The notes below the pieces were generated by a model. That model worked only from the letters and a program-made list of their open reading frames with translations. It was not told the DNA's origin and made no database searches. A program made the position numbers and the translations under genes. Source: Bacteroidota bacterium (GTDB taxonomy: Bacteria; Bacteroidota; Bacteroidia; Cytophagales; Cyclobacteriaceae). From it: 64,000 nt of DNA. The stretch lies in contig JAFDYU010000004.1 of NCBI GenBank assembly GCA_018267285.1, forward strand, positions 1 to 64,000, written 5' to 3'. Every line of letters starts with the position of its first letter. The stretch's first letter is position 1. Shown piece after piece: positions 52,668 to 58,664 of the stretch.

Positions 52668-54191
52668 TCAATGCTTAAAATGCCTGAAGCCCGTAAAGAC
52701 CATAGCCATGTTGTGGTTGTTACAGAAATCAATGGAGTCTTGATCTTTGATGGAGCCTCCCGGCTGAATCACCGCAGTGATGCCGTGCTGGCTGGCGATC
52801 TCAACACAATCGGGAAATGGAAAGAAGGCATCGGATGCCATCGCTGCTCCGTTCAAATCGAAACCGAACGACTTTGCTTTTTCAATCGCCTGCTTCAACG
52901 CATCTACACGGCTGGTCTGGCCAACACCGCTCGAAAACATCTGCCCCTCAACCGCCAGAATGATGGTATTCGACTTGGTATGTTTGCAAATTTTACTGGC
53001 AAATAGGAGCGCGTTTGTTTCCTGTTGCGTTGGAGCGCGCCTGGTCATCGTTTTCAAGTCTGCTTGCGAATCGGTATGCAAGTCCAAATCTTGTTCGATC
53101 ACTCCGTTGAGTAAACTCTTGAATTGTTTTGCAGCTGTGAGATTTTGTTTTTGTTTGAGGATGATCCGGTTTTTTTTCGACTTCAATAATTCTAACGCGC
53201 TTAGATCAAACTCGGGGGCCACTAAAATTTCGAAAAAAAGTTTGTTGATCTCTTCGGCTGCCTGCAAATCAATTTTTTTGTTCGTAGCCAAAACACCTCC
53301 AAAGGCAGAAACCGTATCCGCTTGAAACGCTTTGAGGTAAGCTTCTTTAACCGAAGATGCGGTGGCCACTCCGCAGGCGTTGGTGTGCTTGATGATGACG
53401 AAGGCCGTTTCATCAAATTCCTTAATTAGGTTTATGGCCGCATCAACATCTACTAAATTATTGTACGAAAGTTCTTTGCCGTTAAGCTGATCGAAAAGTT
53501 TTTCCAGTTCGCCAAAATATACTCCTCGTTGATGCGGGTTTTCGCCATAGCGTAGTGCTTTTCCGTTTGGATAACTCGACTTAAAACTAATGATGTTTTG
53601 TTCTTGATTGAAATACGTGAAAATAGCGGAATCGTAGTGCGAGGTAACCTCGAAGGCCAACGCGGCAAATCTTTTTCTGTCGGCCAAATCGGAAGAACTA
53701 TTTTTGGTTTTCAGCAATTCCAAAACCTCGGCATATTGAGCGCGCGAAGAAACGATGAGCACATCCTTAAAATTTTTGGCTGCCCCGCGAATCAGTGAAA
53801 TACCACCGATGTCTATTTTCTCAATAACGTCTTCCTCGCCTCCGCCTTTGGCAACGGTCTCTTCGAACGGGTACAAGTCAACGATTACCAAGTCGATGGG
53901 TGCGATCTTAAATTCTTCTGCTTCTTTCACATCTCCCGATTCCTCCCTTCTATAAAGTATTCCGCCAAATACAGCCGGATGAAGCGTTTTCACCCGTCCG
54001 CCAAAAATCGATGGATAACCCGTCAGTTGCTCTACGGGCGTTACTTGGTAGCCCAACTTCTCAATAAACTCCTGAGTGCCACCGGTAGAAATAAATTCTA
54101 CGTTTTGTTTGGCCAACTCGTGCACAATGGCATCCAGCCCATCTTTGTAAAAAACTGAAACCAGGGCGCGGGTAATTTTCTTTGAAGTCAT
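52668..54191 (-). CDS. purH: Bifunctional purine biosynthesis protein PurH
   Basis: PurH carries out the last two steps of IMP synthesis (AICAR formyltransferase and IMP cyclohydrolase). The ATG at 54191 (MTSKKITRALVSVFYKDG) gives 507 residues. The N-terminal cyclohydrolase domain has FISTGGTQEFIEKLG and KTLHPAVFGGIL. The transformylase domain has the catalytic Lys-His in VIIKHTNACGVAT and SDAFFPFPDCVEIA. The gap to mreB is 106 bases. A -7-like TACATTTG lies upstream (54214-54207), without a -33 partner. Confidence 0.97.
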   Translation of the reverse strand: MTSKKITRALVSVFYKDGLDAIVHELAKQNVEFISTGGTQEFIEKLGYQVTPVEQLTGYPSIFGGRVKTLHPAVFGGILYRREESGDVKEAEEFKIAPIDLVIVDLYPFEETVAKGGGEEDVIEKIDIGGISLIRGAAKNFKDVLIVSSRAQYAEVLELLKTKNSSSDLADRKRFAALAFEVTSHYDSAIFTYFNQEQNIISFKSSYPNGKALRYGENPHQRGVYFGELEKLFDQLNGKELSYNNLVDVDAAINLIKEFDETAFVIIKHTNACGVATASSVKEAYLKAFQADTVSAFGGVLATNKKIDLQAAEEINKLFFEILVAPEFDLSALELLKSKKNRIILKQKQNLTAAKQFKSLLNGVIEQDLDLHTDSQADLKTMTRRAPTQQETNALLFASKICKHTKSNTIILAVEGQMFSSGVGQTSRVDALKQAIEKAKSFGFDLNGAAMASDAFFPFPDCVEIASQHGITAVIQPGGSIKDQDSIDFCNNHNMAMVFTGFRHFKH

Positions 54192-54357
54192 AGTATTTTG
54201 GAGGGTCAAATGTACTTAGATGAATCCTATTTCTGATACTACTCGCGGCAATTCAAATTTGGCTTTCCATTTCAATAGAGGCTGCCCGAAGTCTGTTGAA
54301 AAAAGTGGGGGTCAAACAGTTGTTAGCTGAAATATTTAAGAAAAAGCTGCTGCCTCA
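54192..54357. other. Divergent intergenic region purH / aromatic operon
   Basis: This stretch between purH and the promoter of the attenuator leader is AT-rich. It contains no open frame with gene-like features, and no further repeat was seen. The purH promoter must lie in its first part. Confidence 0.6.
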
Positions 54358-54389
54358 TTTGCGTAGTAAAAAAAATTCTGTTTTATTTG
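54358..54389 (+). promoter_or_regulatory. Candidate promoter of the aromatic amino acid operon
   Basis: TTTG (54358-54361), a 20-base spacer and TTTATTTG (54382-54389) fit TTTG-N20-TAnnTTTG with one mismatch. Transcription would start at about 54394-54396, that is at or beside the ATG of the leader peptide. The message would then be leaderless. Confidence 0.5.
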
Positions 54390-54394
54390 ACCCA

Positions 54395-54460
54395 ATGAAC
54401 ACCGTACAGCGATTTTATTTTTGGTTTTACTTTTTTCAATCCCATCGGGACTTGAGGTAA
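54395..54460 (+). CDS. Aromatic leader peptide of the attenuator
   Basis: This 21-codon frame starts ATG-AAC-ACC and ends with TAA at 54458-54460. Residues 7-14 are FYFWFYFF: five Phe, two Tyr and one Trp in eight consecutive codons (54413-54436). Such a run by chance is extremely unlikely. By analogy with PheL and TrpL of enterobacteria, its translation measures the charging of aromatic tRNAs. Its last codons contain CGGGACT (54446-54452), which can pair with the terminator. It lies 98 bases before the prephenate dehydratase start, with the terminator between. Confidence 0.9.
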   Translation: MNTVQRFYFWFYFFQSHRDLR

Positions 54461-54535
54461 AATCGCTTTGTAAAAGGAAAAACAGACAAACGAAAACATC
54501 AGAGAGTCCCGGCAAAAACCGGGACTTTTTATTTT
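54408..54535 (+). promoter_or_regulatory. Ribosome-mediated transcription attenuator of the aromatic operon
   Basis: Three mutually exclusive pairings are visible. (1) AGCGATTTTA (54408-54417) with TAAAATCGCT (54458-54467), a perfect 10-bp inverted repeat across the leader, enclosing a small TCCC-ATC-GGGA hairpin (54440-54450). (2) Antiterminator: CGGGACT (54446-54452) with AGTCCCG (54505-54511). (3) The terminator stem 54505-54526. A ribosome stalled in the aromatic codons breaks pairing 1 and frees CGGGACT for pairing 2, giving read-through. A ribosome at the stop codon covers CGGGACT, so the terminator forms. The structures are seen directly; the mechanism is inferred from known attenuators. 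Confidence 0.85.
54505..54535 (+). terminator. Intrinsic terminator of the attenuator
   Basis: The stem AGTCCCGG / CCGGGACT (54505-54512 with 54519-54526) has a CAAAAA loop and is followed by TTTT-ATTTTAT. It lies 24 bases before the ATG of the prephenate dehydratase gene, so in the terminated state no enzyme of the operon is made. Confidence 0.92.
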
Positions 54536-54558: not shown

Positions 54559-55401
54559 ATGCGTAAACCAGAGAAATTAAAAATAGCCATTCAGGGGATA
54601 TCCACCTGCTTTCATGAAGTTGCCGCCCGCGAATATTTTCAAGATGCGATAGACCCGGTGGAGTGCCTCACGTTTCACAAGCTTTGCGAATCGCTGAAAA
54701 AAAATGAATGTGATTTCGCCATGATGGCCATTGAGAACACCATTGCCGGAAGCATCCTCCCCAACTATTTCCTGCTTCAAGAATATAAATTCTCCATTGT
54801 GGGAGAAATCTACTTGCCGATTCATCTTCATCTGCTGGCATTGCCGGGCGCACAACTCACCGACATCAAAACCATTGAAAGCCACCCCATGGCCATCCGC
54901 CAGTGTTACGATTTCTTACATAAGCTAAACGGAATAGAGCTGCGCGAAAGCGATGACACGGCAATATCCGCCCGAAAAGTAGCCGAGAAAAAAAATAAAG
55001 CTACGGCAGCCATAGCCAATGAGTTTGCGGCCGAGCGGTTCGGCCTGACTATGCTTGCGCGCAGAATTGAAACTCATAAAAAGAATTTTACAAGATTCTT
55101 GGTGTTGTCGCGTGCAGCAAAAAGTAAAGAAGAGAGCAACAAGGCTTCGCTGTGCTTTGAAGTTTTTAATGAAGTGGGTAGCCTTGCCGATGTGCTCACC
55201 GTTTTTAAAACCAACCAAATCAACCTGAGTAAAATCCAGTCCATACCCGTAATTGGCAAGCCGCGCGAATATTCTATTCATGTAGATGTAGAGTGGGCAC
55301 ACCGAAAAAATTATGAAGCTGCCATGAAGCAGGTGCAAAAACAAACACACAATTTAAATGTGTTTGGCGAGTATAAGAAAGGGAAGATTGAGTACAAGTA
55401 A
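54559..55401 (+). CDS. pheA: Prephenate dehydratase
   Basis: The enzyme converts prephenate to phenylpyruvate, the Phe branch. The ATG at 54559 gives 280 residues; the frame reaches back to 54421 through the terminator, but translation from there is not sensible. The catalytic domain has AIQGISTCFHEVAAREYF, ESHPMAIRQC, DDTAISARKVAE and the Thr-Arg-Phe motif in NFTRFLVLSR. A C-terminal ACT domain (about 195-275) should give feedback control by Phe. There is no chorismate mutase domain here; that activity is fused to the DAHP synthase at the operon end. Confidence 0.95.
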   Translation: MRKPEKLKIAIQGISTCFHEVAAREYFQDAIDPVECLTFHKLCESLKKNECDFAMMAIENTIAGSILPNYFLLQEYKFSIVGEIYLPIHLHLLALPGAQLTDIKTIESHPMAIRQCYDFLHKLNGIELRESDDTAISARKVAEKKNKATAAIANEFAAERFGLTMLARRIETHKKNFTRFLVLSRAAKSKEESNKASLCFEVFNEVGSLADVLTVFKTNQINLSKIQSIPVIGKPREYSIHVDVEWAHRKNYEAAMKQVQKQTHNLNVFGEYKKGKIEYK

Positions 55402-57563: not shown

Positions 57564-58664
57564 ATGAAGAAAGGATTAGAACTGCAATCGATCAAGAGTT
57601 GGATGAACACCGAAAAGCCCATCATCATCAGCGGGCCATGCAGTGCAGAAACCGAAGAGCAAACCGTGGCTACCGCAAAACAAATTGCAGCCACCGGCAA
57701 AGTACATGCCTTGCGTGCCGGCATTTGGAAACCCCGCACAAGGCCCGGGCAATACGAGGGCGCGGGCGATATTGGCCTGCAGTGGCTCATGTCTGCAAAA
57801 AAAGAAACCGGATTACCCGTAACCACAGAAGTTGCAAATGCCGCACACGTTGAGGCGTGCCTGAAAGCCGGTGTAGATATTTTATGGATAGGCGCACGCA
57901 CCACCGTAAATCCGTTTTCGGTACAAGAAATTGCAGACTCCCTGAAAGGCGTTGACATTCCGGTGATGGTAAAAAATCCGGTGAACCCCGACCTAGAACT
58001 TTGGATAGGTGCGCTCGAACGATTGAACAAAGCCGGCATCAAAAAAATGGCTGCCATCCACCGCGGGTTTTCTTCGTTCGAAAAAGGGCCGTTCAGAAAT
58101 CTACCCATGTGGGATATCGCCATTGAATTGAAAACGCGTTTTCCCGAGCTTGATATCATCTGCGATCCGAGCCACATTTCGGGCAACCGCGATCTCATTG
58201 CATTCATTTCGCAAAAAGCACTCGATCTCGACATGGCAGGTTTGATGATCGAAAGCCACATCAACCCCGATGCGGCCTGGAGCGATGCCAAGCAGCAAGT
58301 TACACCGGCTGTGCTCGGAAAAATTATCAGCGAACTGGTGGTACGCAAAACTTCGAGCGAGGATAAAACATTTAAAGATACACTGAGTCTGCTGCGCGAA
58401 CAGATTGACCAGATTGACGATGAGGTTATGCAAAAATTGGCGCAGCGAATGAAAATTTCTGAAAAGATTGGCCAGTACAAAAAAGAAAACAACGTAACTA
58501 TCCTTCAGGTAACCCGATGGGAAGAGATTATACACACACGCATTGCGCTGTGCAAAGCCATGGGGTTGAGCGAAGAGTTTACCACCGAATTGCTAAAATT
58601 GATTCACCACGAATCGATACAAGTACAAACAAAAGTGATGAACCAGATGAAAGCGAGAGTATGA
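57564..58664 (+). CDS. DAHP synthase fused to chorismate mutase
   Basis: The 366-residue protein has an N-terminal type I-beta DAHP synthase domain (about 1-262; GPCSAETEEQTVATAKQIA, RAGIWKPRTRPGQYEG, AAIHRGFSSFEKGPFRN and the metal-ligand segment ICDPSHISGNRDLI). A C-terminal AroQ-type chorismate mutase domain (about 270-355; LSLLREQIDQIDDEVMQKLAQRMKISEKIG) follows. It starts the shikimate pathway and also makes prephenate for pheA and tyrA. The fused mutase can act as the allosteric sensor for prephenate in related enzymes. Because its product also leads to Trp, control by an attenuator containing Trp, Tyr and Phe codons makes sense. Confidence 0.94.
   Translation: MKKGLELQSIKSWMNTEKPIIISGPCSAETEEQTVATAKQIAATGKVHALRAGIWKPRTRPGQYEGAGDIGLQWLMSAKKETGLPVTTEVANAAHVEACLKAGVDILWIGARTTVNPFSVQEIADSLKGVDIPVMVKNPVNPDLELWIGALERLNKAGIKKMAAIHRGFSSFEKGPFRNLPMWDIAIELKTRFPELDIICDPSHISGNRDLIAFISQKALDLDMAGLMIESHINPDAAWSDAKQQVTPAVLGKIISELVVRKTSSEDKTFKDTLSLLREQIDQIDDEVMQKLAQRMKISEKIGQYKKENNVTILQVTRWEEIIHTRIALCKAMGLSEEFTTELLKLIHHESIQVQTKVMNQMKARV

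What the first reader, a model, noticed from the sequence alone, without database searches (positions are those of the whole stretch)
54395..54535. Complete ribosome-mediated attenuator with an FYFWFYFF leader peptide before an aromatic amino acid operon
Seen directly: a 21-codon frame with eight consecutive aromatic codons (54413-54436); a perfect 10-bp inverted repeat (54408-54417 with 54458-54467) that spans the leader; CGGGACT at 54446-54452, in the last leader codons, complementary to the 5' arm of the terminator; and a perfect 8-bp intrinsic terminator with T run 24 bases before pheA. All parts of a classical attenuator are in the right order and spacing. Known attenuators of this kind are best described in Proteobacteria. 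A clear case in Bacteroidota, where translation starts differ, would be of wide interest.
Basis: partly seen in the sequence, partly recalled or inferred. Interest (0 to 1): 0.93.

Follow-up and report, generated by a model that had tools for sequence, protein, structure and literature searches.

The report
Three-aromatic leader attenuator across Bacteroidota
In front of the predicted genes for making phenylalanine and tyrosine, this Bacteroidota bacterium carries a tiny reading frame with eight aromatic codons in a row and RNA segments that can pair in competing ways; together these likely act as a switch that would turn the genes on when aromatic amino acids run short, and an aromatic-rich frame followed by a terminator-like hairpin is present in all 56 genomes of its genus examined that carry the first gene.

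Summary
Folding gives an antiterminator as stable as the terminator (means -19.60 and -19.61 kcal/mol); swapping strands between species weakens it.

Beyond the finding: 87 of 110 further genomes of the class have such a leader, in 19 of 26 families, always mixing Phe and Tyr codons. Leaders track the DAHP synthase-chorismate mutase gene in the operon (17 of 17 with leader, 6 of 23 without). The genus also has His leaders before hisG and Trp leaders before trpE.

It is not the first in Bacteroidota: a 2021 Flavobacterium psychrophilum paper reports leader-peptide clues before amino-acid operons and a conserved element before pheA (PMC9723704). Phe/Tyr short frames before shikimate genes are in print too, organism not seen by me (PMC6429828). 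The response to amino acids is untested. New variant of a known kind.

The parts
54315..54326 (.). AACAGTTGTTAG: window's form of a conserved palindrome (CTAACnnnnGTTAG in most relatives); candidate operator or promoter element
   Evidence: CTAACn4GTTAG in 39 of 56 genus sequences, AACn4GTTAG in 14 more, AACn4GTT in 2, none in 1. Function inferred only.
54395..54460 (+). leader peptide frame MNTVQRFYFWFYFFQSHRDLR and stop
   Evidence: sequence; aromatic leader in 56 of 56 genus sequences; no stop in frame 0 within 14 codons in any, against 54 and 21 of 56 in the other two frames
54413..54436 (+). eight consecutive aromatic codons (Phe x5, Tyr x2, Trp x1), the predicted sensing codons
   Evidence: aromatic fraction 0.93 in frame against 0.39 and 0.25 in the other frames over 56 sequences
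54408..54417 (+). strand 1 (outer part), pairs with 54458-54467
54437..54443 (+). strand 1 (inner part) CAATCCC, pairs with GGGACTTG 54447-54454; would be covered by a ribosome stalled on the last aromatic codons
54446..54467 (+). strand 2: CGGGACTTG pairs with strand 3 (antiterminator) or with 1-inner; TAAAATCGCT pairs with 1-outer
54446..54512 (+). extended antiterminator hairpin (2:3), -18.8 kcal/mol: CGGGACUU/GAGUCCCG, GGU/AUC, UCG.UUUGU/ACAAACGA
   Evidence: better than the mean of middle-shuffled controls in 56 of 56 genus sequences
54502..54535 (+). intrinsic terminator (3:4), 8 perfect GC-rich pairs extended with wobbles, then T run
   Evidence: present in 56 of 56 with 98.1% of pair cells standard
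54559..55401 (+). pheA, prephenate dehydratase (PDT domain)
   Evidence: PF00800 185 bits
55439..56638 (+). class I/II aminotransferase
   Evidence: PF00155 212 bits
56646..57488 (+). tyrA, prephenate dehydrogenase
   Evidence: PF02153 + PF20463; NF006307 356 bits over its cut-off
57564..58664 (+). DAHP synthase fused to chorismate mutase (called aroF-CM here)
   Evidence: PF00793 + PF01817

Best explanation
The stretch 54395-54535 is most likely a ribosome-mediated transcription attenuator that is predicted to let RNA polymerase read into the pheA-aminotransferase-tyrA-DAHP synthase operon when charged Phe-, Tyr- or Trp-tRNA is scarce. Predicted working: (a) with enough aromatic amino acids, the ribosome runs to the stop codon at 54458 and covers strand 2 (54446-54467), so strand 3 (54505-54512) would pair with strand 4 and form the terminator; (b) when a ribosome stalls on the aromatic codons, above all the last ones, it would cover both parts of strand 1, which frees strand 2 to pair with strand 3 as the RNA emerges and so block the terminator; (c) with no translation, 1:2, which is made first, would form and termination again follow. 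Shown: the sequence parts, their conservation, the competing pairings by folding and their nearly equal predicted stabilities. Inferred: translation of the leader, stalling, termination and the amino-acid response. The mixed Phe/Tyr/Trp run would make it an any-aromatic sensor, which suits an operon that holds the entry enzyme of the shared pathway.
For: Leader + terminator in 56 of 56 same-genus genomes with a PheA match. With a stricter terminator rule the count is still 56 of 56, against 0 of 560 shuffles; the reverse strand gives 2 of 56. Coding signature: first codon positions of the aromatic block are nearly fixed (mean entropy 0.32 bits), while the second and third vary (0.96, 0.87), mostly between Phe and Tyr codons; no frame-0 stops in the first 14 codons. 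Terminator: 98.1% of pair cells kept, 42 two-sided changes against 9.2 in shuffles, best slid version 60.2%. 1:2 stem: 83.1%, 25 against 11.5, best slide 53.1%. 2:3: 90.5%, 11 against 4.0, best slide 64.2%. Swap test: native strand 2 with its own strand 3 averages -16.9 kcal/mol, swapped arms -14.5; native better than the mean of its swaps in 50 of 56. Antiterminator and terminator have equal mean stability, -19.60 and -19.61 kcal/mol. The inner antiterminator helices beat the mean of middle-shuffled controls in 56 of 56. Ribosome-occupancy folds on the window, tried at eight positions, show 2:3 with the A site on codons 7, 9, 10, 12 and 14 and not on codons 16, 18 and 22. The sensed amino acids match the operon's predicted products. 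Rfam Phe_leader RF01859 aligns over its full length at the right place, below threshold (30.5 bits, cut-off 55).
Against: No RNA-seq, ribosome profiling or reporter data were available. Stricter covariation counts do not stand out: the number of pairs with a two-sided change was reached by 241, 30 and 120 of 500 shuffles. RNAalifold on the MAFFT alignment of the 2:3 segment predicted no pairs. Fourteen loci of Chryseolinea-type and related Cytophagales keep the 2:3 hairpin but show no two-sided change, and their pairing is no better than column shuffles (91.7 against 91.4%). In equilibrium folds of the full RNA the terminator wins even with a stalled ribosome, and without any ribosome the RNA cut at strand 3 folds as 2:3 rather than 1:2, so steps (b) and (c) both need co-transcriptional kinetics; only the full-length folds without ribosome show 1:2 with 3:4. 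The leader start lacks the A at -3 favoured in Flavobacterium johnsoniae in most relatives (15 of 56 have it; preference from PMC6847099), and an in-frame TTG at 54296 could extend the frame.
Confidence: 0.92

Rival explanations
1. The leader senses through its nascent peptide: the aromatic chain itself would arrest the ribosome when a free aromatic amino acid or other ligand is bound, rather than by lack of charged tRNA.
For: A short aromatic peptide is present in all 56.
Against: Residue identity in the block drifts between Phe and Tyr (and Trp, Ser or others at one position); a binding motif would be expected to keep fixed residues. The sensed residues are the predicted products of the operon.
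Confidence: 0.04
2. Regulation is mainly at initiation through the conserved palindrome CTAACnnnnGTTAG, and the terminator only gives constant basal attenuation.
For: The palindrome or a partial form lies before the leader in 55 of 56 relatives, its GTTAG half 73-93 nt upstream where present. Of 5 genomes searched, 2 have the exact 16-base form ACTAACn4GTTAGT; it stands before pheA in both, with one other site in one of them (the reversed control pattern had 2 and 3 hits in two of the five).
Against: It does not explain an aromatic leader under codon-level selection or the kept alternative pairings. It is almost absent from the wider class set (1 of 110) where leaders are common. Both layers can coexist.
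Confidence: 0.03
3. A T-box or metabolite riboswitch controls the operon, and the leader frame is incidental.
For: Structured 5' region with a terminator before a biosynthesis operon.
Against: Rfam finds no T-box or riboswitch in the window at gathering thresholds, and none among the leader's 12 weak hits up to E 5. The aromatic frame is under codon-level constraint.
Confidence: 0.01

Closest known systems
Phe_leader, Rfam RF01859 (pheL-type attenuator; that it is enterobacterial and Phe-only is recalled)
   Same: Leader-type family with a full-length alignment (1-125) at the right place; its 1:2, 2:3, 3:4 scheme and pheA target are recalled
   Different: Score 30.5 against cut-off 55, so not a member by Rfam's rule; leader mixes Phe, Tyr and sometimes Trp; operon also holds tyrA and DAHP synthase-chorismate mutase; Bacteroidota
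5' elements upstream of pheA and hisG in Flavobacteriaceae (PMC9723704, section 19 read)
   Same: Same phylum, same first genes; that paper reports strong clues for leader-peptide attenuation before amino-acid operons and conserved, Rfam-less elements before pheA and hisG
   Different: The section gives no anatomy, peptide or covariation, and does not say outright that the pheA element is the leader-peptide type; here Cytophagales and the wider class, with codon-level and pairing evidence.
Two candidate uORFs before shikimate genes with Phe and Tyr codons (PMC6429828, Fig. 6 legend, passages)
   Same: Short frames with both Phe and Tyr before genes of the same pathway, proposed as regulatory
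   Different: Found in a survey of five genomes; I did not see which organism or gene, nor any antiterminator. It means that a mixed Phe/Tyr leader as such is not new.
Bacteroid-trp, Rfam RF01692 (PMC2864571, table row seen)
   Same: Listed as a cis-regulatory motif in Bacteroidetes; that it is a trp leader attenuator is recalled from its name
   Different: No match to the leader here nor to the trpE locus of this genome at E 0.5
Multivalent attenuators such as ilvGMEDA and thr of Escherichia coli (recalled, not looked up)
   Same: One leader with codons for several products of one pathway
   Different: Aromatic family; here the mixture is in one contiguous block whose residues interchange between species

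Membership tests
Ribosome-mediated amino-acid attenuator (functional class) | Short leader frame rich in codons for the operon's product | tested here: met
   operon
Ribosome-mediated amino-acid attenuator (functional class) | Intrinsic terminator between leader and first gene | tested here: met
   By sequence and folding:
Ribosome-mediated amino-acid attenuator (functional class) | Antiterminator that shares strand 3 with the terminator | tested here: met
   By folding and comparison only; RNAalifold on the MAFFT alignment found nothing
Ribosome-mediated amino-acid attenuator (functional class) | 1:2 protector stem overlapping the sensing codons | tested here: met
   but without ribosome the RNA cut at strand 3 folds as 2:3
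Ribosome-mediated amino-acid attenuator (functional class) | Two-sided covariation of the three helices | tested here: inconclusive
   Cell counts exceed shuffles; counts of pairs do not; none in 14 loci of Chryseolinea-type and related Cytophagales
Ribosome-mediated amino-acid attenuator (functional class) | Read-through rises when the cognate aminoacyl-tRNA is scarce | not testable with these tools
   Needs reporter or RNA-seq
Rfam RF01859 Phe_leader | Bit score at or above the gathering cut-off of 55 | tested here: not met
   30.5 bits, E 0.0023
Rfam RF01692 Bacteroid-trp | Match to the covariance model | tested here: not met
   No match at gathering or up to E 5 on the leader
T-box leader | Match to the Rfam T-box model | tested here: not met
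   Only a tRNA passes in the window; no T-box among weak hits on the leader

The most novel reading that the evidence does not exclude
Across much of the class Bacteroidia, in a phylum that initiates translation without Shine-Dalgarno sequences, one leader that interleaves Phe and Tyr (and sometimes Trp) codons works as an any-aromatic OR gate on the operon that holds the pathway's entry enzyme, DAHP synthase-chorismate mutase. Together with the His and Trp leaders before hisG and trpE, it means that this group relies on ribosome-paced attenuation, and hence on tight transcription-translation coupling, for amino-acid control.
Probability: 0.55. Interest if true: 0.75.

Novelty: new variant of a known kind. 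Interest (0 to 1): 0.6.

Why it matters
Ribosome-mediated attenuation works only if the ribosome keeps pace with RNA polymerase. Whether such coupling is general is contested: a review notes that runaway transcription may be fairly widespread in bacteria (PMC7858274, passages). A kept attenuator in many Bacteroidia families is a ready-made in vivo test of coupling in a phylum that lacks Shine-Dalgarno sequences (PMC6847099, abstract and passages). The strong co-occurrence of the leader with DAHP synthase in the operon suggests why the sensor is mixed: it would guard the shared entrance to all aromatic amino acids. Annotation of Bacteroidota genomes could gain leader genes and terminators before pheA, hisG and trpE; none of these passed an Rfam cut-off in the loci tested.

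Tried and rejected
Rfam at gathering thresholds on the whole window: only a tRNA. Rfam at loose thresholds on the leader: Phe_leader below cut-off, 11 further hits chance-like. On ten other loci: eight hits, all below cut-off, among them Phe_leader in 2 and Thr_leader in 2.

RNAalifold on the antiterminator alignment gave zero pairs, probably because MAFFT shifted the short arms; I relied instead on fixed-structure counts, per-sequence folds, swaps and middle shuffles. A fixed-structure count in 14 Chryseolinea-type and related Cytophagales loci found no two-sided change.

An upstream in-frame extension or a second upstream frame (FSFFFEP-like reading of a conserved U-rich stretch) was examined and rejected as a leader: it is in frame with the leader in some species and not in others. 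Before ilvD and two further chorismate-binding enzymes of the own genome no leader by my rules was seen. The 23 leaderless class members were checked by script for neighbouring frames and terminators and 7 of them also for short frames. None has a clear aromatic leader; L254 has a terminator after a weakly aromatic frame (MFFIYICS...) and may be a reduced case.

Papers: no paper held all the terms or; the searches returned lists from which the cited papers come. Lopatovskaya et al. 2010 (seen only as a reference) may cover Bacteroidetes and was not available.

Full report
What is there. The frame 54395-54460 encodes MNTVQRFYFWFYFFQSHRDLR. Its stop lies 98 bases before a four-gene operon: prephenate dehydratase, an aminotransferase, prephenate dehydrogenase and DAHP synthase fused to chorismate mutase. 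It is the only short frame with 7 or more aromatics in 8 residues on either strand of the window. I infer that the genome belongs to a genus of Cytophagales: the contig of relative G012 (same genus) has the length of an OLB12 contig, and that of G076 (same family, other genus) has the length of a Chryseolinea contig; Chryseolinea is Cytophagales in NCBI's taxonomy.

Conservation. Of 146 genomes in the relatives search, 122 have a PheA match. I examined upstream DNA for 90 of these 122; the other 32, all weak matches (E 1e-23 or worse), were not fetched. All 56 same-genus genomes with a match, the window's included, have an aromatic leader (28 with 8 aromatics in 8 residues, 25 with 7, 3 with 6) and a terminator (in three of them the PheA match is split or partial). 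Six same-genus genomes have no PheA match. Of the other 34 examined, 10 have an aromatic leader: 9 with a terminator, one (L069) without one by my rule. An eleventh hit, L073, is a TTG frame 691 bases upstream that I count as absent. A separate genome scan gave 65 loci (some the same species as above): 62 have leader and terminator; the misses are L169, L171 (a chance frame without terminator) and L172 (3 bases of upstream DNA). Named isolates among the 62 include Chryseolinea serpens, C. lacunae, Ohtaekwangia koreensis, Dawidia soli, Pseudochryseolinea flava, Parachryseolinea silvisoli, Chryseosolibacter histidini and Chryseotalea sanaruensis.

Not chance. With the rule of at least 5 aromatics in 8 plus a terminator of at least 7 pairs, 56 of 56 genus sequences pass, against 2 of 56 reverse strands and 0 of 560 shuffles. 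In the class set 73 of 110 pass, against 0 of 110 reverse strands and 0 of 1100 shuffles. The leader rule alone is looser: 8 of 56 and 10 of 110 reverse strands, 49 of 560 and 79 of 1100 shuffles pass it. Codon evidence: within the block the first codon position barely varies; the second and third do, mostly among Phe, Tyr and Trp codons. The in-frame aromatic fraction is 0.93 against 0.39 and 0.25 in the other frames.

The competing pairings. On the MAFFT alignment of 56, the 1:2 stem keeps 83.1%, the terminator 98.1% and the antiterminator 90.5% of pair cells. The best slid versions reach 53.1, 60.2 and 64.2%. Cells with two-sided changes are 25, 42 and 11, against shuffled means of 11.5, 9.2 and 4.0. 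The stricter count, pairs with any two-sided change, does not stand out (241, 30 and 120 of 500 shuffles reach it). Examples can be read: GGGACT/AGTCCC in most rows, GGGGCT/AGCCCC in L006-L008 and L011, GGGGATT/AATCCCC in L048 and L050. Alignment-free: swapping terminator arms between species costs about 2.4 kcal/mol on average, and the native pair beats the mean of its swaps in 50 of 56. In the class set, 62 of 80 leader-terminator pairs have a strand 2-3 duplex better than all but at most one of 30 base shuffles.

A longer antiterminator. Folding the segment from strand 2 to strand 3 gives a long hairpin in the window: CGGGACUU/GAGUCCCG, then GGU/AUC, then UCG.UUUGU/ACAAACGA, -18.8 kcal/mol. 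Over the 56 genus sequences the antiterminator averages -19.60 and the terminator -19.61 kcal/mol. The middle of the hairpin is better than the mean of its shuffles in 56 of 56 (-19.6 against -15.25). A hairpin of the same build, an outer helix of 7-9 pairs and further inner helices, folds in all eight named species tried. Against this, 14 Chryseolinea-type and related Cytophagales loci show no two-sided change in it, and RNAalifold on the genus alignment found none of it.

Ribosome model. With the A site on codons 7, 9, 10, 12 or 14 the segment up to strand 3 folds as 2:3; on codons 16, 18 and 22 it does not (footprint of 13 nt beyond the A site assumed; other codons not tried). With the A site on codons 7-10 the inner 1:2 hairpin is still free in the full-length fold, so stalling on the last aromatic codons should be most effective. 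At equilibrium the terminator still wins in the full-length folds, so 2:3 must act by forming first. Without a ribosome, the RNA cut at strand 3 folds as 2:3, while the full-length RNA folds as 1:2 with 3:4; the no-translation state therefore also depends on 1:2 being made first. This is the usual assumption for such systems (recalled) and is not shown here.

Breadth. In 396 genomes of the class (drawn evenly), 121 have a PDT match. I examined 110 newly fetched places; 6 more had been seen in the relatives set and 5 were not fetched (G488, G097, G115, G130, G143). Of the 110, 87 have an aromatic leader (25 with 8 in 8, 37 with 7, 14 with 6, 11 with 5), 80 with a terminator by the looser rule, in 19 of 26 families. 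Families without any are f33 (0 of 8), f41 and f82 (0 of 2 each), and f73, f44, f89 and f45 (0 of 1 each); in the window's own family, other genera, it is 2 of 8. All 87, and all 56 of the genus, contain both Phe and Tyr; 30 and 12 contain Trp.

Link to DAHP synthase. In 20 loci of the same order chosen for operon context, all 8 with aroF-CM downstream have a leader and none of the 12 without it do (a few of these stretches end at a contig end). In 40 class genomes (all 23 leaderless ones and 17 of the 87 with leader, picked to span families), aroF-CM lies downstream in 17 of 17 with leader and 6 of 23 without (Fisher p 1.5e-6, not corrected for phylogeny). Two of the six exceptions are very small genomes, 1.2 and 0.5 Mb.

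Other operons. In the window's own genome, hisG is preceded by MNQFQNIHHHHLFHTSGRCSVLI and trpE by MNKISANAWWWYRSFFDRCPAMP, each followed by a terminator. In the genus, His-rich leaders with a terminator occur in 25 of 26 hisG loci with full flanks (the miss, L307, has only two adjacent His), plus 1 of 4 truncated ones. Leaders with WW or WWW and a terminator occur in 28 of 29 trpE loci long enough to test; the miss, L340, is cut by a contig end. These two counts have no shuffle control. Only 30 loci were examined for each, of 38 and 34 genomes with a match.

What was known. PMC9723704 (section 19 and passages) reports strong clues for leader-peptide attenuation before amino-acid operons of Flavobacterium psychrophilum and elements before pheA and hisG shared with other Flavobacteriaceae, without Rfam hits. 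PMC2864571 (table row only) lists Bacteroid-trp in Bacteroidetes. PMC6429828 (passages) shows two candidate uORFs before shikimate genes with notable Phe and Tyr; I did not see the organism. PMC7366714 (passages) notes leader-like short frames in Bacteroides. [quoted passage not shown] I found no paper that describes this pheA leader's anatomy in Bacteroidota, its long antiterminator or the link to DAHP synthase in the operon, in the searches; most subscription papers are outside that library.

Verdict. Observation confirmed, interpretation supported, with first-in-phylum novelty removed. The new parts are the class-wide reach, the Phe+Tyr mixture in every leader counted, the long antiterminator of equal predicted stability and the tie to DAHP synthase.

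Noticed in passing
window 54315-54326; GTTAG half 73-93 nt upstream of the leader in relatives: A conserved palindrome CTAACnnnnGTTAG (39 of 56; 14 more with AACn4GTTAG). In the two of five genomes that hold its exact 16-base form there is only one site besides those before pheA. It suggests a DNA-binding regulator of pheA in addition to attenuation.
   Followed up: partly
8-35 nt upstream of the leader ATG, window about 54376-54390: A conserved U-rich stretch (TTTTTnnTTTYTTNG-like) in the presumed 5' UTR of the genus; not a consistent reading frame. Function unknown.
   Followed up: partly
L286 and L291-L319, before hisG: His-rich leader peptides with terminators in 25 of 26 full-flank loci of the genus; L307 has a degraded one (HH only).
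   Followed up: partly
L287/L320 and L321-L349, before trpE: WW/WWW leader peptides, often followed by a His, with terminators in 28 of 29 testable loci of the genus.
   Followed up: partly
leaders of the genus: Two forms of the leader: a short one that stops just before the second half of strand 2 (as in the window) and a long one (such as ..ERESLC) that is read through it.
   Followed up: no
window 52668-54209, minus strand: The divergent neighbour reads like purH (name recalled from the translation). A homologue lies near pheA in 7 of 65 scanned loci, in divergent orientation in all 7.
   Followed up: no
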